DNA of 46,737 nt. Source: Lachnospiraceae bacterium (GTDB lineage: Bacteria > Bacillota > Clostridia > Lachnospirales > Lachnospiraceae). Positions 14,090 to 46,737 of this stretch are shown here, in pieces (the stretch's first letter is position 1; every line of letters starts with the position of its first letter). A program made the position numbers and the translations under genes. A model generated the notes under the pieces. The model was not told the origin of the DNA. It searched no databases and saw only the letters and a list, made by a program, of their open reading frames with translations. Where the stretch lies: positions 1 to 46,737 of the forward strand of contig JAFTXD010000041.1 in NCBI GenBank assembly GCA_017461775.1, in the 5' to 3' direction.

Positions 14090-15286
14090 CTATTTTGTAG
14101 GAAAAAGCCCTGCCACAAGCACCAGCATATCATCCTGGATATGCCCGCCGCCGGCGGAAATGGCAAAGGTAAGAATTTCATTTGCCATGGCGGTGGGGCT
14201 GTTTTCCTGCATTTCTCCCACGAAAAGCCTCAGCAGCTCTTCCTGATCCACTCCCGAAAAGGCATTCAGTACGCCGTCGGTCACCATAATCACGTAGTCC
14301 CCCGGGGTCAGTTCCTTTTCCACCTGCTCGTGGTCCACATGGCTGAATATCCCCAGCGGCAGATTGCGCACGGCTACCTCCTCCACATAGCGCCCCCGCT
14401 TAATAAAGGTGGTGGCTCCACCGATTTTGTGCAGGCGGCACCGACCGGTATATAAATCCACGTTGCAAATATCCAGTGTGGACATATTGGTCTCCTCTCC
14501 CCCAAAGAGAAGCACATTATTTACCAGATTAATGGCGGTAGGTATCTGGTACCCAGCCTCTAAAAGGCGTTCCATCAGCTCTACCACCTGCCCGCTTTCC
14601 CGGCAGGCATCGCTGCCGGAGCCCATGCCATCGGATACAATCAGTGCCACATGACTACTGTCCGCGTGATACACGGAAAAGCTGTCGCCACTGACCTGCT
14701 CCATCTCCCGTATGGCCTTGGCATGTCCTGTAAATATAGTATAGGAAGGCTCCTCCACAAAAAAGAAACTGGTAGTTTCCTTTCCCAGATAATACACACT
14801 TCCCGGTGCCGGTATCAGCCTTCTGTCCAGCAGCACAGAAATCATGTCCGCCACCTCCGTAATGGGATATCCTCCCTGCTTCGTGGTACTCATACGCACA
14901 CACAGGGTATCGGTAGGCCGGTTGTCCCCTTTGGCAAAGTAAAACACATCCTCCACCAGGATTTTCTCCTGCTTCAAAGCCTTTACAAACATACGGACCT
15001 GCCGCTCGGGGATTCTGCGCACGGAAAATACCTCCCGGGCAATCTCCTCCAGAATCCGTGACATTTCACACATATTCTCAGAAAGCACCTGCACATTTTC
15101 CAGCTGCCTGCTCTTCTCCAGCCTGCTGCGCCTTCCCGGCTCCTCCATGGTCCAGATCTGTCCAATGGGAAAGCTGGTGGACAAATCCCGGAATGTGCCT
15201 GCATAATCCAAAAGACGGCTTTTTCCGTAATCGGAAATCACCAGCTCTCTGGATGTTTTTTCTCTACTCTTTGTCGCTGTCATCAT
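14090..15286 (-). CDS. spoIIE: SpoIIE-type PP2C protein phosphatase lacking the membrane domain
   Basis: A 398-residue protein. Its C-terminal half is a SpoIIE/PP2C phosphatase: ALIVSDGMGSGSDACRESGQ, the conserved MSTLDICNVDLYTGRCRLHKIGG, GDYVIMVTDGVLNAF and QDDMLVLVAG carry the metal-binding aspartates. B. subtilis SpoIIE (about 830 residues) has ten N-terminal membrane helices; here none is present and residues 1-190 form a soluble regulatory region. The ATG at 15286 has a GGAGGTAGGACG site, so the start is real. Position between divIC and tilS is that of spoIIE, which dephosphorylates SpoIIAA to activate sigma F. The membrane anchor is either supplied elsewhere or lost. Confidence 0.85.
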   Translation of the reverse strand: MMTATKSREKTSRELVISDYGKSRLLDYAGTFRDLSTSFPIGQIWTMEEPGRRSRLEKSRQLENVQVLSENMCEMSRILEEIAREVFSVRRIPERQVRMFVKALKQEKILVEDVFYFAKGDNRPTDTLCVRMSTTKQGGYPITEVADMISVLLDRRLIPAPGSVYYLGKETTSFFFVEEPSYTIFTGHAKAIREMEQVSGDSFSVYHADSSHVALIVSDGMGSGSDACRESGQVVELMERLLEAGYQIPTAINLVNNVLLFGGEETNMSTLDICNVDLYTGRCRLHKIGGATTFIKRGRYVEEVAVRNLPLGIFSHVDHEQVEKELTPGDYVIMVTDGVLNAFSGVDQEELLRLFVGEMQENSPTAMANEILTFAISAGGGHIQDDMLVLVAGLFPTK

Positions 15287-15353
15287 CGTCCTACCTCCGG
15301 AAAATCTTTCCTTCCACTATAGGACATCCATAGCTCTTTTTTTGTCAAAATGC

Positions 15354-15665
15354 GGTAGCCCGAAAAATATAACGCTTGCCGTGGAATCCATGGGGAGAGC
15401 AGGGGGAAGATATGGCTGGGGAAAATTGGGCAGACTCCGATATTTAAGAACTTCTAGTATTTCTGATGCAGTCTGTGATAGGCCACGCGTCGGAAGCAAT
15501 TCGCGTCCATGCGAAGTGCTTCCTCGTGTGAGCGTCCATGCTCACACACCGCTGTTTATGAAACAGAAATACAAGAAGTTCTAAAATATCTCCATATGCC
15601 CGATTTCCCCCAGCCATATCTTCCCCCTGCTCTCCCCATGGATTCTACTACACATTTCGGGTACC
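15354..15665. repeat. nested long inverted repeat element A
   Basis: A 312-bp non-coding element splitting spoIIE from divIC. The main arms are 15384-15465 and 15564-15645, 82 nt each, with nine differences and the first 38 positions identical. Short outer arms (15354-15365 with 15655-15665) extend it. The interior holds two tandem hairpins. The first pairs 15492-15504 with 15511-15523 and the second pairs 15526-15533 with 15540-15547; both have the loop GTCCAT. The same cassette recurs, inverted, at the right end of the window. No gene or terminal target duplication is seen. Confidence 0.85.
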
Positions 15666-15701
15666 AAAAAAGGGCATGCCCGCGCTCGCGGCAGCCCTTT
15701 T
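15666..15701 (-). terminator. terminator after divIC
   Basis: An AAAGGGC / GCCCTTT outer stem with a GC-rich inner stem is followed by T6 on the minus strand. It lies just after the divIC stop (15708) and abuts element A. Confidence 0.8.
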
Positions 15702-15707
15702 CTCAAG

Positions 15708-16049
15708 TTAATCCTGCTTTTTAAATAATATTTCGTCCTCGTGCACCAGACCAAGCTTTTCCTTAGCGACCTGCTCATAGTACTTCATGGTCTGCACTTC
15801 CTTGCCGTATTCCTCGATTTCCAGACTACGGTTCTCTTCCTTGGCAATCTGATCCTCCAGAGCCTGACTTTCTGCCTCTAGAAGCTCCTTCTTCTCCTTA
15901 AGACCGGCGGCACCTACGCCTACCACCACCAGCATCATAGCTACTACACCGGTAACCACCACCATGCTGAGGGCATGTGTACGCTTCGTTCCACGTCCTT
16001 TACTATTTCTCGCTCTTTTCTTTCTTGCTGCGCTTCCTGCCATGTCCAA
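15708..16049 (-). CDS. divIC: septum formation initiator DivIC/FtsB-like protein
   Basis: A 113-residue bitopic protein. It has a basic cytoplasmic tail (about 1-28), one membrane helix (about 30-47, VVVTGVVAMMLVVVGVGAAG) and an extracellular coiled coil (about 50-95, KKELLEAESQALEDQIAKEENRS read in pieces), as in DivIC/FtsB of the divisome. It overlaps the yabQ end by up to 47 bases. The start is uncertain: TTG at 16049 is 5 bases after AGGAGG, while ATG at 16043 is 11 bases after it. Order yabP-yabQ-divIC matches B. subtilis. Confidence 0.88.
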   Translation of the reverse strand: MDMAGSAARKKRARNSKGRGTKRTHALSMVVVTGVVAMMLVVVGVGAAGLKEKKELLEAESQALEDQIAKEENRSLEIEEYGKEVQTMKYYEQVAKEKLGLVHEDEILFKKQD

Positions 16050-22854: not shown

Positions 22855-23125
22855 GTATTCAGAGCCCTTTTCGTAACCTATGGCGTGTCACGATGCTGTA
22901 TAAGCTGCCTGCTCAGGGTTGATATGTCTTTTTCAGACCCTTGAAAAACGTCGGCACTTGGCGAGGTCTTTTCGAGCCTAGTACCGCCCTGCGAAAAATC
23001 TTGCGCATATGGATTTTTCGCATGTTCACGGCGTGAGAACATGTCTGAAAAAGACATATCATCCCTAAGCAGACAGCTTATACAGCATCGTGACACCTCA
23101 CCACAACCTACGCCTTACTCTGAAT
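22855..23125. repeat. nested long inverted repeat element B
   Basis: Main arms are 22885-22937 and 23044-23096, 53 nt each with three differences, two of which are G.U-compatible in minus-strand RNA. Faint outer arms share ATTCAGAG (22857-22864 and about 23118-23125). The 106-nt interior contains hairpins 22990-23000/23012-23022 (11 bp) and 23021-23027/23037-23043 (7 bp). It sits between a terminator and the start of the HAD gene and has no coding content. Confidence 0.85.
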
Positions 23126-29984: not shown

Positions 29985-31757
29985 TTAGTTAACGTAACCA
30001 GCATCTAAAGCTGCCTTCTTCTCATCGATGATTGCCTGATAACCAGCCTCAAGGTACTGCTTGCTAGCTTCTTCGTAGTTCTTCTCGAAATCAGCCTCAG
30101 AGCCCATTACGATCTTATCACGAAGAGTTGCGTAAGAGGTCCAAAGAGTCTCTTTGTACTCATCAGCTGCTGCGATAGATACGGTGAACATAGCGTCAGG
30201 AGAAGCTAAGCCAGCATCGTAGCAAGCAAGCTGTCCTTCGTAGTTCTTCTTGATGTCAGCGAAGAACTGATCAGAATCAGGATATCCCATAGGAGTGATA
30301 GCCTTGATATCCTTATCAACATCGCCTAAGGATCTGGTTGCAGTTACTAAACACCACATATCAACGTTGTTGTTATGGCTCTGCTGCTCTTCGATACCAG
30401 ACTGATCAGCTACAGATACAGGGTTACCATTCTCATCATAGTTGAAGTTCTTGCCTTCGAAGCCCCACTGTAAGGTGAAGAGGATGTCATCCTGGCTCAT
30501 CCACTCAAGATACATAGCAAATGCCTGCTTCTCTTCCTCAGTAGCCTGGCTGGAGAAACCAATGTACTCACCGAAGATACCGTTAGGACGGAATGCATTA
30601 CAGGTTCCATCAGAGTAGGTCTCAGGACCATTGTTGGTGATGATACCTAACTTAGCACCAGGATTCTGCTCATAGAACTGATTTAATACGTCAATGTTGT
30701 TGGTTGAGTAGCAAGAGTAAGTAAAGGTCTTACCACTTACAAAGTCAGAAATAGCGAAATCTGAAGTTCTGGTGTTGTACTCGTCATCAATATAACCTAA
30801 GTTGTAAAGGGTGTTGTTCCACTTTAATAACTTCTTCTGTGCTTCGGTAGAAAGAGCAGGGATAGAGTAGTCACCGGTAGTTGCCCAAAGAACTTCATCC
30901 TGAGGATAGGTTCTATAAGCATAGTTCTGGTCTACACCATTACCCTCAACCTTGGTACCACCAAGAATGTGGTCGCCACCAAGACCAAGCTCATCAATCT
31001 TAGCATACATCTTAAGTAACTCAGCAGGATCGGTAGGATACTCAGTGTAACCAGCTGCCTCTACCCAGTCCTTACGATAGAAGGTTACGAACTGATAGTT
31101 AGTCTTACCATAAGGTCTGGTACCGATGATAAGAACGTTCTCACCGTTGATCTCGGTGTAAGGAGCAAGACCTTCAGCTTCCATGTTAGCCCAGTAGGTA
31201 GGAGCGATATTCTTGAACCACTCGATATCATACTCTGCGAAGTAACCTTCGTTCTGATACATGGTTACGTCAGGATAGTCGTACTCGAAACAACATACAG
31301 GAAGCTCACCAGATGCTGCTAAGAGTGCATAGTTTTCATTCTCCTGACCACGAGGTAAAGCAACGTACTCAACATCGATGTTGTACTTGTCGCCGAACTC
31401 AGTCTGTACCCAATCAGTCCAGTAGTTGTCAGCAGCATCTGCAGCACCGTTAGGTGTAGCACGCTGATATACAGGAATTCTTAAGGTTACGGTCTCATCA
31501 AATGCCTTGAAGCCTTCGATACCAGGAACTGCTGGGGTATCATCTGCTGCAGGAGCATCAGAAGAACCAGAGTTGCTTGAATCGCTGGAACCTGCGTTGC
31601 TTGAGCCAGAGTTGCTTGAATCACTTGTTCCTGCATTGCTAGAACCTGCGTTGCTTGCTGCTGGTTCGTCAGAACCGCCACATGCTGTTAAAGTACCCAT
31701 TGCCATAGCACCTGCAAGTGCGATAGCAAGAAGTTTCTGAAGAGTATTCTTCTTCAT
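29985..31757 (-). CDS. extracellular sugar-binding lipoprotein (rhamnogalacturonan locus)
   Basis: A 590-residue family-1 type solute-binding protein of a carbohydrate ABC importer (LplA/YtcQ-like). The signal peptide ends at a lipobox with Cys26 (LTAC). A Ser/Asn/Gly/Ala-rich flexible linker (about 27-75, with repeats of SSNAG and SDSSNSG) joins it to the binding domain (FYRKDWVEAAGYTEYPTDPAELL). It should capture oligosaccharides from pectin at the cell surface and deliver them to the permeases encoded just upstream. AGGAGG precedes the ATG. The substrate is inferred from the downstream enzymes. Confidence 0.92.
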   Translation of the reverse strand: MKKNTLQKLLAIALAGAMAMGTLTACGGSDEPAASNAGSSNAGTSDSSNSGSSNAGSSDSSNSGSSDAPAADDTPAVPGIEGFKAFDETVTLRIPVYQRATPNGAADAADNYWTDWVQTEFGDKYNIDVEYVALPRGQENENYALLAASGELPVCCFEYDYPDVTMYQNEGYFAEYDIEWFKNIAPTYWANMEAEGLAPYTEINGENVLIIGTRPYGKTNYQFVTFYRKDWVEAAGYTEYPTDPAELLKMYAKIDELGLGGDHILGGTKVEGNGVDQNYAYRTYPQDEVLWATTGDYSIPALSTEAQKKLLKWNNTLYNLGYIDDEYNTRTSDFAISDFVSGKTFTYSCYSTNNIDVLNQFYEQNPGAKLGIITNNGPETYSDGTCNAFRPNGIFGEYIGFSSQATEEEKQAFAMYLEWMSQDDILFTLQWGFEGKNFNYDENGNPVSVADQSGIEEQQSHNNNVDMWCLVTATRSLGDVDKDIKAITPMGYPDSDQFFADIKKNYEGQLACYDAGLASPDAMFTVSIAAADEYKETLWTSYATLRDKIVMGSEADFEKNYEEASKQYLEAGYQAIIDEKKAALDAGYVN

Positions 31758-35118: not shown

Positions 35119-35131
35119 CTGCCCGCTATAC

Positions 35132-35268
35132 GAAATAAATAAGCCGCACTTTCACGGCCGACCAACAACAAAATACCCCTTTCCAAAGGTTCCGATGCAG
35201 TGGCAAGTCACCTTTGGAAAGGGGTATTTCATTGTTGGTCGGCCGCGAAAGCACGACTTATTTATTTC
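35132..35268. repeat. long inverted repeat element C (59-bp stem)
   Basis: Arms 35132-35190 and 35210-35268, 59 nt each with six differences and a 19-nt loop, fill the gap between two convergent genes and begin directly after the stop of the sortase-substrate gene. All six differences are transitions that pair as G.U in minus-strand RNA but are A-C mismatches in plus-strand RNA. It could serve as terminator for both genes, yet it is several times longer than a terminator stem needs to be. Confidence 0.85.
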
Positions 35269-36069
35269 TTAGTTTTCTTCTTTACCAGACGCAAATTTCA
35301 GGCCCATGCCCACTACCAGACATGCTGCCGCAAGGCCGAACATCCAGTAATATGTAGCAAAATCGCCGGTCTTTGGTACATCATCCAGCTCATCTCCTGC
35401 GGAGGTAGATGGCTTAGTAACAGGTGCAGGAGCAGGGGTAGCCACTACCACAGGGGTCTGACTGAATTTTGAAACCTCTGTTTTCAAAGCACCCTGTGAA
35501 ATTCTGAGAGAATTACTTTCAAAATTGTAGAATTCAAAATGTGTACGTTCCGAATCATAGGCCTTTACATGATTTACTGTACCGATTACACTAACAGTTG
35601 CAGATAGTGGATAATTTCCAAAAATCTCCAAATAATCTACATTATTATTAAAATTTGCAATACTTGACTGATACACATATCCATTAGTTACATCGCCGTT
35701 GATAGCGCCTACACTATCATTTAAAACGTACACATTATCAACTCCCGGCGTGTGGATTACCACATTATCGGCCTTCTCCAACGTAATATTACTTAAACGC
35801 TTATCCACTGTCAGATTCAGCGACATGGAATCGTCAGAAATAACCAGCTTATCGCCATCCTTCATATCCAGGAACATATAATATAATTCTCTATGAGTGC
35901 CATTCTCCACCCACGGGTAGCCGACCTGCTGGCGCCACTCACCATTAACCACCTTCAAAGTGTATGTAACCGGCTCTGCGGCCTCTACATCTACTTTCGT
36001 AAAGCAAAGCGCAGTAAACATCATGCACAGGCTCAACATAACAGTCCATACCTTTTTCATTTTTTTCAT
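35269..36069 (-). CDS. secreted surface protein with VPKTG sortase signal
   Basis: A 266-residue exported protein. The signal peptide (1-31, cleaved near VEAAE) is followed by a beta-rich domain of no recognised family, with many short repeating strands (LYYMFLDMKDGDKLVISDD, NITLEKADNVVIHTPGVDNVYVLND). A Pro/Ala/Thr linker leads to the C-terminal sorting signal: VPKTG, a hydrophobic helix (YYWMFGLAAACLVVGMG) and a charged tail ending KEEN. It should be attached to the wall by the class B sortase encoded 21 bases upstream in the same operon. AAGGAGG precedes the ATG. Confidence 0.85.
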   Translation of the reverse strand: MKKMKKVWTVMLSLCMMFTALCFTKVDVEAAEPVTYTLKVVNGEWRQQVGYPWVENGTHRELYYMFLDMKDGDKLVISDDSMSLNLTVDKRLSNITLEKADNVVIHTPGVDNVYVLNDSVGAINGDVTNGYVYQSSIANFNNNVDYLEIFGNYPLSATVSVIGTVNHVKAYDSERTHFEFYNFESNSLRISQGALKTEVSKFSQTPVVVATPAPAPVTKPSTSAGDELDDVPKTGDFATYYWMFGLAAACLVVGMGLKFASGKEEN

Positions 36070-46539: not shown

Positions 46540-46737
46540 TACACTCCCTACAACGCTGAGTCTACAGCTAGGAATTGGGGATGTGCCTCCGGGAATAACT
46601 TTGCAGGGCAGGAAGACAGGTGGGGCATAGTGCTTGGAAGCTGCGTGTGAAGACATTTTAGTTTTTCTTAGTGTTCTGCTCGATTTGAAGGGGCGATTGG
46701 GCATGGATGCCCAATCGAGGAAGCACTGCGCATGGAC
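46540..46737. repeat. partial nested inverted repeat element D, cut by the window end
   Basis: This non-coding stretch ends in the same hairpin cassette as element A but inverted. On the minus strand it reads GTCCAT, then GCGCAGTGCTTCC, TC, and a stem GATTGGGC / GCCCAATC (46709-46716 with 46695-46702) around ATCCAT. The flank at about 46648-46685 also aligns loosely with the inner right arm of element A. The left boundary is approximate, and the other arm must lie beyond the window if the element is complete. Confidence 0.65.

What the first reader, a model, noticed from the sequence alone, without database searches (positions are those of the whole stretch)
15354..15665. Two distant elements share a double-hairpin cassette with compensated stem changes
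Element A holds two tandem hairpins, both with loop GTCCAT. The window end (46695-46737, minus strand) repeats this order: loop GTCCAT, a 13-base arm differing from A at one position, TC, then a second hairpin. The second stems are GTGTGAGC/GCTCACAC in A and GATTGGGC/GCCCAATC in D. All three arm differences are matched by complementary changes in the opposite arm, while the loop changes only from GTCCAT to ATCCAT. Covariation with a fixed loop indicates selection on a folded nucleic acid. I do not recognise a described family.
Basis: partly seen in the sequence, partly recalled or inferred. Interest (0 to 1): 0.75.

Follow-up and report, generated by a model that had tools for sequence, protein, structure and literature searches.

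The report
Known TwoAYGGAY double-hairpin repeat, many copies
The two look-alike hairpin pairs are copies of an already catalogued bacterial RNA motif, TwoAYGGAY, present in dozens of copies in this bacterial genome; its loops look like docking sites for the regulator protein CsrA, and its stems change in a way that suggests they are also rewritten at the DNA level.

Summary
Both sites are TwoAYGGAY (Rfam RF01731), so "no described family" is wrong. Element A scores 103 bits (cut-off 43). The window end is a second copy, cut off by the contig end. The genome holds 37 copies above cut-off. Rfam groups the family with CsrB, and a CsrA-binding role was proposed in 2014. My tests bear on that. Loops read C-A-N-G-G-A-N-G in 282 of 396 hairpins and are inverted in none. 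CsrA is found in 62 of 65 carriers against 148 of 332 non-carriers in the family, where it is inseparable from flagella. Elsewhere in the phylum it is 30 of 31 against 33 of 49; among flagellated genomes, 30 of 31 against 31 of 41. Two further results were not in the passages I read. The stems covary almost without G-U pairs (0.6-1%, against 14.7% in RNase P RNA), suggesting DNA-level repair of the palindrome. In one relative the motif sits inside elements with terminal inverted repeats next to TA. Most likely it is a dispersed palindrome carrying paired CsrA-type sites. Transcription and binding are untested.

The parts
15381..15648 (-).
   Evidence: I1; fold, z -15 and -19
15432..15596 (-). 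TwoAYGGAY core, RF01731, positions 1-168 of 168, 103.2 bits
15526..15547 (-). First hairpin in RNA orientation, loop AUGGAC closed by C-G (CsrA-site-like)
   Evidence: read; aligned
15492..15523 (-). Second hairpin in RNA orientation, loop AUGGAC closed by C-G
   Evidence: read; aligned
46571..46737 (+). Second copy, cut by the contig end at its second loop; 165/167 identical to a copy in contig C83
15708..16049 (-). Flanking gene upstream of element A in RNA orientation: DivIC-like septum protein (24.7 bits, below the Pfam cut-off of 28.9)
14090..15286 (-). Flanking gene downstream of element A in RNA orientation: protein with SpoIIE domain (100.2 bits)

Best explanation
Both sites are copies of TwoAYGGAY (RF01731). 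It is a palindromic element dispersed in tens of copies. Its core presents two neighbouring hairpins whose hexaloops (A-N-G-G-A-N, closed by C-G) match the CsrA binding site. SHOWN: family identity, copy number, loop conservation, presence of csrA next to fliW in this genome, and statistical association with CsrA. INFERRED: when transcribed, the two loops bind one CsrA dimer and titrate or locally recruit it, as CsrB/RsmZ-type RNAs do in other bacteria. INFERRED: the stems stay paired largely because replication template switching between palindrome arms rewrites them, while selection keeps the loops from being inverted or lost. INFERRED: copies spread by transposition of elements that carry the core. 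Transposon-like ends are shown in one relative only, and no transposase was looked for.
For: Identity: 103.2 bits, cut-off 43; 37 copies over cut-off; 0 of 14 control genomes ring. Same Rfam clan CL00106 as E. coli CsrB. Loops: C-A-N-G-G-A-N-G in 282 of 396 hairpins of 198 copies, GGA in 332 of 396, inverted in 0; in this genome 36 of 36 first and 34 of 36 second loops. Consensus RUACARGGAUGU with ACA and GGA 100% conserved and GGA in a hairpin loop: passage of PMC4347634. CsrA in this genome next to FliW and flagellar genes, similar in sequence to solved CsrA chains. Association: 62/65 carriers vs 148/332; outside the family 30/31 vs 33/49, and within flagellated genomes 30/31 vs 31/41, Fisher p 0.013. 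Dispersal: 24 copies seen in G006 (a floor); among 21 of them, 13-base terminal inverted repeats with TA before 18 of 19 left ends and after 16 of 18 right ends found, 17 copies with both ends found. DNA-level stem upkeep; mechanism described in PMC8794818 (abstract and passages).
Against: No transcript or binding data. In 17 of 65 examined flanks in this genome a terminator points towards the element against 4 pointing away, so read-through into it may be weak. In the family set CsrA is inseparable from flagella (FlhA 64/65 carriers vs 147/332; within flagellated genomes CsrA 62/64 vs 143/147). None of the p-values corrects for shared ancestry. Carriers without detected CsrA: G267, G418, G456 (family), G007, G058 (genus), G675 (phylum). 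GGA is lost from the first loop in 24 of 24 G006, 12 of 12 G074, 7 of 11 G088 and 3 of 9 G045 copies, and from the second loop in 8 of 12 G010 copies. In three genomes of one genus the motif sits antisense in the flagellar gene cluster, which does not fit cis-regulation of that cluster.
Confidence: 0.55

Rival explanations
1. A purely DNA-level mobile palindrome (MITE- or REP-like). The hairpins and conserved loops serve recognition of single-stranded DNA or transposition, and RNA function is incidental.
For: Near-absence of G-U pairs (0.56% in this genome, 1.04% across relatives, 14.7% in RNase P control). G-U and A-C mismatches nearly balanced in the core across relatives (24:17, against 388:10 in RNase P) and in the outer arms of other genomes (129:121). 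Terminal repeats and TA flanks in G006. Near-identical copies with different flanks.
Against: Loops match the CsrA consensus, and the family tracks CsrA even among flagellated genomes outside its own family. G-U does exceed A-C along closest-neighbour steps (39:15; sign test p 0.0015) and in this genome's arms (53:25; p 0.002). G006 copies, which show the clearest transposon-like ends, are among those with a degraded first loop.
Confidence: 0.3
2. A bidirectional transcription terminator or an mRNA 3'-end stabiliser placed after genes.
For: Very stable hairpin on both strands; some copies lie near terminators of neighbouring genes.
Against: No terminator-like site with a T tract in 15250-15800. 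In 17 of 65 flanks a terminator already precedes the element. Would not need conserved GGA loops.
Confidence: 0.07
3. Independent short hairpins that resemble each other by chance.
For: None found.
Against: 37 family matches over cut-off in the genome; covariation above all 500 shuffles on all five measures.
Confidence: 0.01

Closest known systems
TwoAYGGAY RNA, Rfam RF01731 (Weinberg et al. 2010, PMC2864571; table passage seen)
   Same: Model match over positions 1-168, two hairpins with AYGGAY loops, enclosing stem; listed taxa include human gut and Clostridiales
   Different: Here 37 copies in one 2.9-Mb genome; outer arms of 24-76 nt beyond the model in 32 of 37 copies. The 2010 table marks it 'probably RNA' and 'probably not' cis-regulatory, while the Rfam type printed is Cis-reg
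CsrB/RsmY/RsmZ CsrA-sequestering sRNAs (CsrB is in clan CL00106; the others recalled)
   Same: GGA in hairpin loops, paired sites, same Rfam clan as CsrB; proposed for TwoAYGGAY in PMC4333381 (passages seen)
   Different: Two sites per element but tens of dispersed copies, instead of many sites in one or two genes (latter recalled); no shown promoter or terminator; stems almost free of G-U
MITEs / TA-targeting IS630-mariner-type elements (type recalled, not tested)
   Same: In G006: 13-base terminal inverted repeats, TA at 34 of 37 ends found, many near-identical copies
   Different: No transposase or autonomous relative was looked for; such ends were not defined for this genome's copies
Template-switch-maintained RNA hairpins (Monttinen and Loytynoja 2022, PMC8794818; abstract and passages seen)
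   Same: Compensatory double changes without intermediates
   Different: That paper also shows inverted loops; here 0 of 396 loops are inverted

Membership tests
TwoAYGGAY (RF01731) | Covariance-model score above the curated cut-off, full length | tested here: met
   103.2 bits vs 43, positions 1-168 of 168
TwoAYGGAY (RF01731) | Two hairpins with AYGGAY loops | tested here: met
   Element A: AUGGAC in both; window-end copy: first loop AUGGAU complete, second hairpin cut at its loop by the contig end
CsrA-sequestering sRNA | GGA sites in hairpin loops, usually paired | tested here: met
   135 of 198 copies have two GGA loops, 62 have one, 1 has none
CsrA-sequestering sRNA | CsrA encoded in the genome | tested here: met
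   Two CsrA genes, one beside fliW
CsrA-sequestering sRNA | Binds CsrA | not testable with these tools
   Needs a binding assay
CsrA-sequestering sRNA | Expressed as a small RNA with its own promoter and terminator | tested here: inconclusive
   Two weak promoter-like matches in 15250-15800, both on the + strand, whereas the RNA is on the minus strand; no terminator-like site. Only element A was scanned
MITE | Terminal inverted repeats and target-site duplication | tested here: inconclusive
   In relative G006: shared ends plus TA at 18 of 19 left and 16 of 18 right ends; not defined for the copies of this genome; no empty site seen
MITE | Mobilised by a transposase | not tested
   No transposase search made
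Intrinsic terminator | GC stem followed by a T tract | tested here: not met
   0 sites in 15250-15800

The most novel reading that the evidence does not exclude
A mobile palindrome spreads paired CsrA-binding hairpins through genomes of flagellated bacteria of this phylum. Its stems are rewritten by DNA template switching while selection holds only the loops, giving a genome-wide, copy-number-tuned CsrA sponge and an 'RNA family' whose covariation is produced mainly at the DNA level.
Probability: 0.25. Interest if true: 0.75.

Novelty: new member of a known kind. Interest (0 to 1): 0.42.

Why it matters
The finding itself is a new set of members of an RNA family published in 2010 without a known function. 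It becomes useful because it makes the published CsrA proposal testable: 30 of 31 carriers outside the family and 62 of 65 inside it have CsrA, and copy number in the genus sample runs from 1 to at least 24, with 37 here. It also warns that strong covariation, the usual evidence for structured RNA, can arise in DNA palindromes. The G-U to A-C ratio is a cheap check that helps to separate the two.

Tried and rejected
Terminator idea: no T-tract terminator at the element. CsrA association inside the family as decisive evidence: rejected as confounded, because FlhA tracks the motif as well as CsrA does. Flagellar-cluster location as support for cis-regulation: rejected, because in G505, G591 and G625 the motif is antisense to the genes and only G606 is sense. 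Of these four hits G505 and G591 are below the Rfam cut-off and G625 and G606 less than 1 bit above it; Pfam was run on neighbours in G505, G625 and G606, not G591, whose reading frames have a similar layout. Empty-site proof: only one relative of the flanking gene was found. It lacks the motif but has a different ~670-nt palindrome at the same place, so it is not an empty site. A hairpin finder of my own misplaced hairpins, including 3 false 'inverted' loops; replaced by alignment columns. Strand test on outer arms: G-U 53 vs A-C 25 in this genome but 129 vs 121 in others; not conclusive. Literature searches: TwoAYGGAY (7 papers, 5 listed), skipping-rope/drum motifs, CsrA sponges in Firmicutes, the CsrA consensus, quasipalindromes, and MITE plus CsrA (only the Rfam 12 paper). 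Of the TwoAYGGAY papers I saw passages of four; PMC7657543 was seen in the listing only. None of these passages gave a MITE-like or G-U-free account of the family. That is no proof that it is not in print. Rfam 15 lists two more covarying pairs for RF01731 after R-scape (passage of PMC11701678); I ran no R-scape.

Rows dropped: alignment A1 used 36 of 37 copies (the partial one in contig C29 left out). The truncated window-end copy was left out of the loop and G-U counts, though it is one of the 68 rows. A2 has 68 matches from 73 sources: some sources gave none, a few gave two. In one search, pairs standard in under 80% of rows were skipped (1, 0, 2 and 2 in the four sets). In one search, 21 double changes that involve a non-Watson-Crick state (34 in RNase P) stand apart from the counts given. 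In the phylum test the 17 carriers below the Rfam cut-off were not tested for CsrA, and 49 of 347 non-carriers were chosen at roughly even steps before their CsrA state was known. Searches scored at most 24, 6 and 6 candidates per genome, so copy numbers there are floors. Only 19 left and 18 right ends could be found in 21 G006 copies, allowing two mismatches in an 11-base motif. The genus table (25 carriers: 23 with CsrA; 76 non-carriers: 57; p 0.056) assumes that the one unlisted non-matching genome is G100; all 23 other carriers were listed with CsrA.

Full report
OBSERVATION. The sequence is as described. On the + strand element A carries two tandem hairpins with loop GTCCAT, and the minus strand of the window end repeats the order with one change in the 13-base arm and three compensated changes in the next stem. 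Element A is the centre of a 90+90-nt inverted repeat that folds far below its shuffles on either strand. The window is one whole contig of a draft genome (G000, 2.9 Mb, 172 contigs, 82% complete), and the contig ends inside the second copy.

IDENTITY. An Rfam scan of the window gives TwoAYGGAY (RF01731) at 15432-15596 minus, 103.2 bits against a cut-off of 43, positions 1-168 of 168. A search of the whole genome gives 37 matches above the cut-off, with none in 14 control genomes. A covariance model from 36 of the genome's copies finds the truncated copy at the window end. That copy is 165/167 identical to one at the end of contig C83, with different sequence to the left of position 46571. Two further copies at the ends of contigs C152 and C113 also share a core and lead into different 3' flanks.

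STRUCTURE AND COVARIATION. On 36 copies, 99.0% of stem cells pair, 26 of 38 pairs have a double change, 190 cells carry one, and no shuffle in 500 reaches these values; slid structures pair in 33-44% of cells. Across 68 matches from the window and relatives, 919 cells carry double changes (that alignment was fitted to the model). Copies also have outer arms beyond the Rfam model, 24-76 nt in 32 of 37 copies of this genome (some are cut by contig ends), in inverted-repeat register within each copy.

AN ODD FEATURE. G-U pairs are almost missing. In RNase P RNA from 30 relatives (of 38 genomes with a match), aligned with MAFFT and folded by consensus, G-U makes up 14.7% of standard pairs, one-sided to two-sided changes are 134:337, and G-U to A-C is 388:10. 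In TwoAYGGAY the same measures are 0.56%, 6:180 and 7:3 in this genome, and 1.04%, 16:872 and 24:17 over relatives (with MAFFT and a fresh consensus fold, on 17 pairs, 2.1%, 12:434 and 22:17). Along nearest-neighbour steps among 136 copies in ten genomes there are 281 Watson-Crick to Watson-Crick double changes, 39 one-sided steps involving G-U, 15 involving A-C and 59 involving transversion mismatches, against 331, 193, 11 and 41 for RNase P, whose steps are longer. Ordinary RNA selection should leave many G-U intermediates and few A-C. The pattern fits arms rewritten together at the DNA level, a mechanism described for RNA hairpins as replication template switching (PMC8794818, abstract and passages). 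The excess of G-U over A-C along steps (39:15, sign test p 0.0015) leaves room for some RNA-strand selection as well. RNase P is the only RNA control used.

LOOPS. In 198 copies, 282 of 396 loops read C-A-N-G-G-A-N-G, 332 of 396 contain GGA, and none is inverted, though loop inversion is an expected by-product of template switching (PMC8794818 passages); 135 copies have two GGA loops, 62 one, 1 none. The set is dominated by ten genomes with many copies; among the 48 copies from other genomes the numbers are 40, 7 and 1. GGA is lost from the first loop in 24 of 24 G006, 12 of 12 G074, 7 of 11 G088 and 3 of 9 G045 copies, and from the second in 8 of 12 G010 copies. A strand-specific loop largely held while stems vary is the best evidence of a function, and the loop matches the CsrA consensus RUACARGGAUGU (ACA and GGA 100% conserved, GGA in a hairpin loop; PMC4347634 passage), except that N is most often a pyrimidine where the consensus has R.

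CsrA. Rfam places TwoAYGGAY in clan CL00106 together with E. coli CsrB, and a 2014 paper proposed that TwoAYGGAY binds CsrA (PMC4333381, passages). I tested co-occurrence. This genome has two CsrA genes. One lies in a fliW-csrA-flaG-fliD run, and the other between an integrase-family gene and a flagellin gene. In the family sample of 397 genomes CsrA is found in 62 of 65 carriers and 148 of 332 non-carriers, but FlhA, a flagellar marker, is found in 64 of 65 and 147 of 332, so the two cannot be separated there (within flagellated genomes 62/64 vs 143/147). Outside the family, CsrA is found in 30 of 31 carriers above cut-off and 33 of 49 sampled non-carriers; FlhA in 31 of 31 and 41 of 49; and within flagellated genomes CsrA in 30 of 31 and 31 of 41 (Fisher p 0.013). 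This favours CsrA over flagella as the partner, without correction for ancestry. In the genus sample 23 of 25 carriers have CsrA against 57 of 76 others (p 0.056; the two carriers without it are 59% and 73% complete).

DISPERSAL. In the genus sample 25 of 101 genomes carry the motif; 12 have one match and 13 have 6 to 24, where 24 is the cap. In the complete genome G006, copies sit in shared repeats bounded by 13-base terminal inverted repeats. In 21 copies examined, 19 left and 18 right ends could be found; TA precedes 18 of 19 left ends and follows 16 of 18 right ends, and the 17 copies with both ends span 467-694 bases. That is MITE-like; the transposase is unknown. For this genome's copies no common ends were established. 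At element A's site the only relative found (Lachnospiraceae MAG, 81% protein identity in the neighbour) has no TwoAYGGAY, but has a different palindrome of about 670 nt between the same two genes. Around this genome's copies, terminators point towards the element in 17 of 65 flanks (11 of 33 upstream, 6 of 32 downstream) and away in 4, against 5 hits in 151 random windows scanned on both strands (random windows are probably mostly coding, so the comparison shows mainly that these copies lie at gene ends).

MECHANISM. Most likely: a dispersed palindrome whose transcript, when made, offers a CsrA dimer two loops; the effect would be titration of CsrA or local action on a neighbouring transcript. 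Shown: identity, copy number, loop conservation, association with CsrA. Inferred: transcription, binding, titration, template switching, transposition in this genome. The main rival is a DNA-only mobile palindrome.

VERDICT. New members of a known family whose leading functional hypothesis is already in print. Not in the passages I read, and so possibly new: the co-occurrence test, the G-U-poor covariation with never-inverted loops, and the transposon-like ends in a relative.

Noticed in passing
window 35129-35271 and 22885-23096: Two other long inverted repeats (62-nt arms 89% complementary, 19 nt apart; 54-nt arms 94% complementary, 104 nt apart) with no Rfam match; seen.
   Followed up: no
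L158 1760-2445: A related Lachnospiraceae MAG has a ~670-nt imperfect palindrome (fold z -36) of a different kind at the place of element A, with no Rfam match; this intergenic spot holds long palindromes in both genomes.
   Followed up: partly
L062 762-3120 (G000:C157): A second, lower-scoring CsrA gene lies between a phage-integrase-family gene and a flagellin gene; similar lower-scoring second CsrA genes occur in many genomes of the genus sample.
   Followed up: partly
L200-L202 (G074:C50:3049-5529): Three TwoAYGGAY copies in 2.5 kb, starts 1157 bases apart, the first in the opposite orientation to the other two.
   Followed up: no
L269, L270, L271, L272: TwoAYGGAY-like hits near the cut-off lie in flagellar gene clusters: beside fliK (antisense) in G505 and G625 and in the same layout in G591, one genus, and between flhB and flhA (sense) in G606.
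   Followed up: partly
window 15432-15596: Rfam labels the family Cis-reg, while the discovery paper's table marks it as probably not cis-regulatory.
   Followed up: no
window 31564-31656: A run of related 15-base units (GAACCAGAGTTGCTT-like) inside a 590-aa open reading frame on the minus strand, perhaps a low-complexity linker.
   Followed up: no
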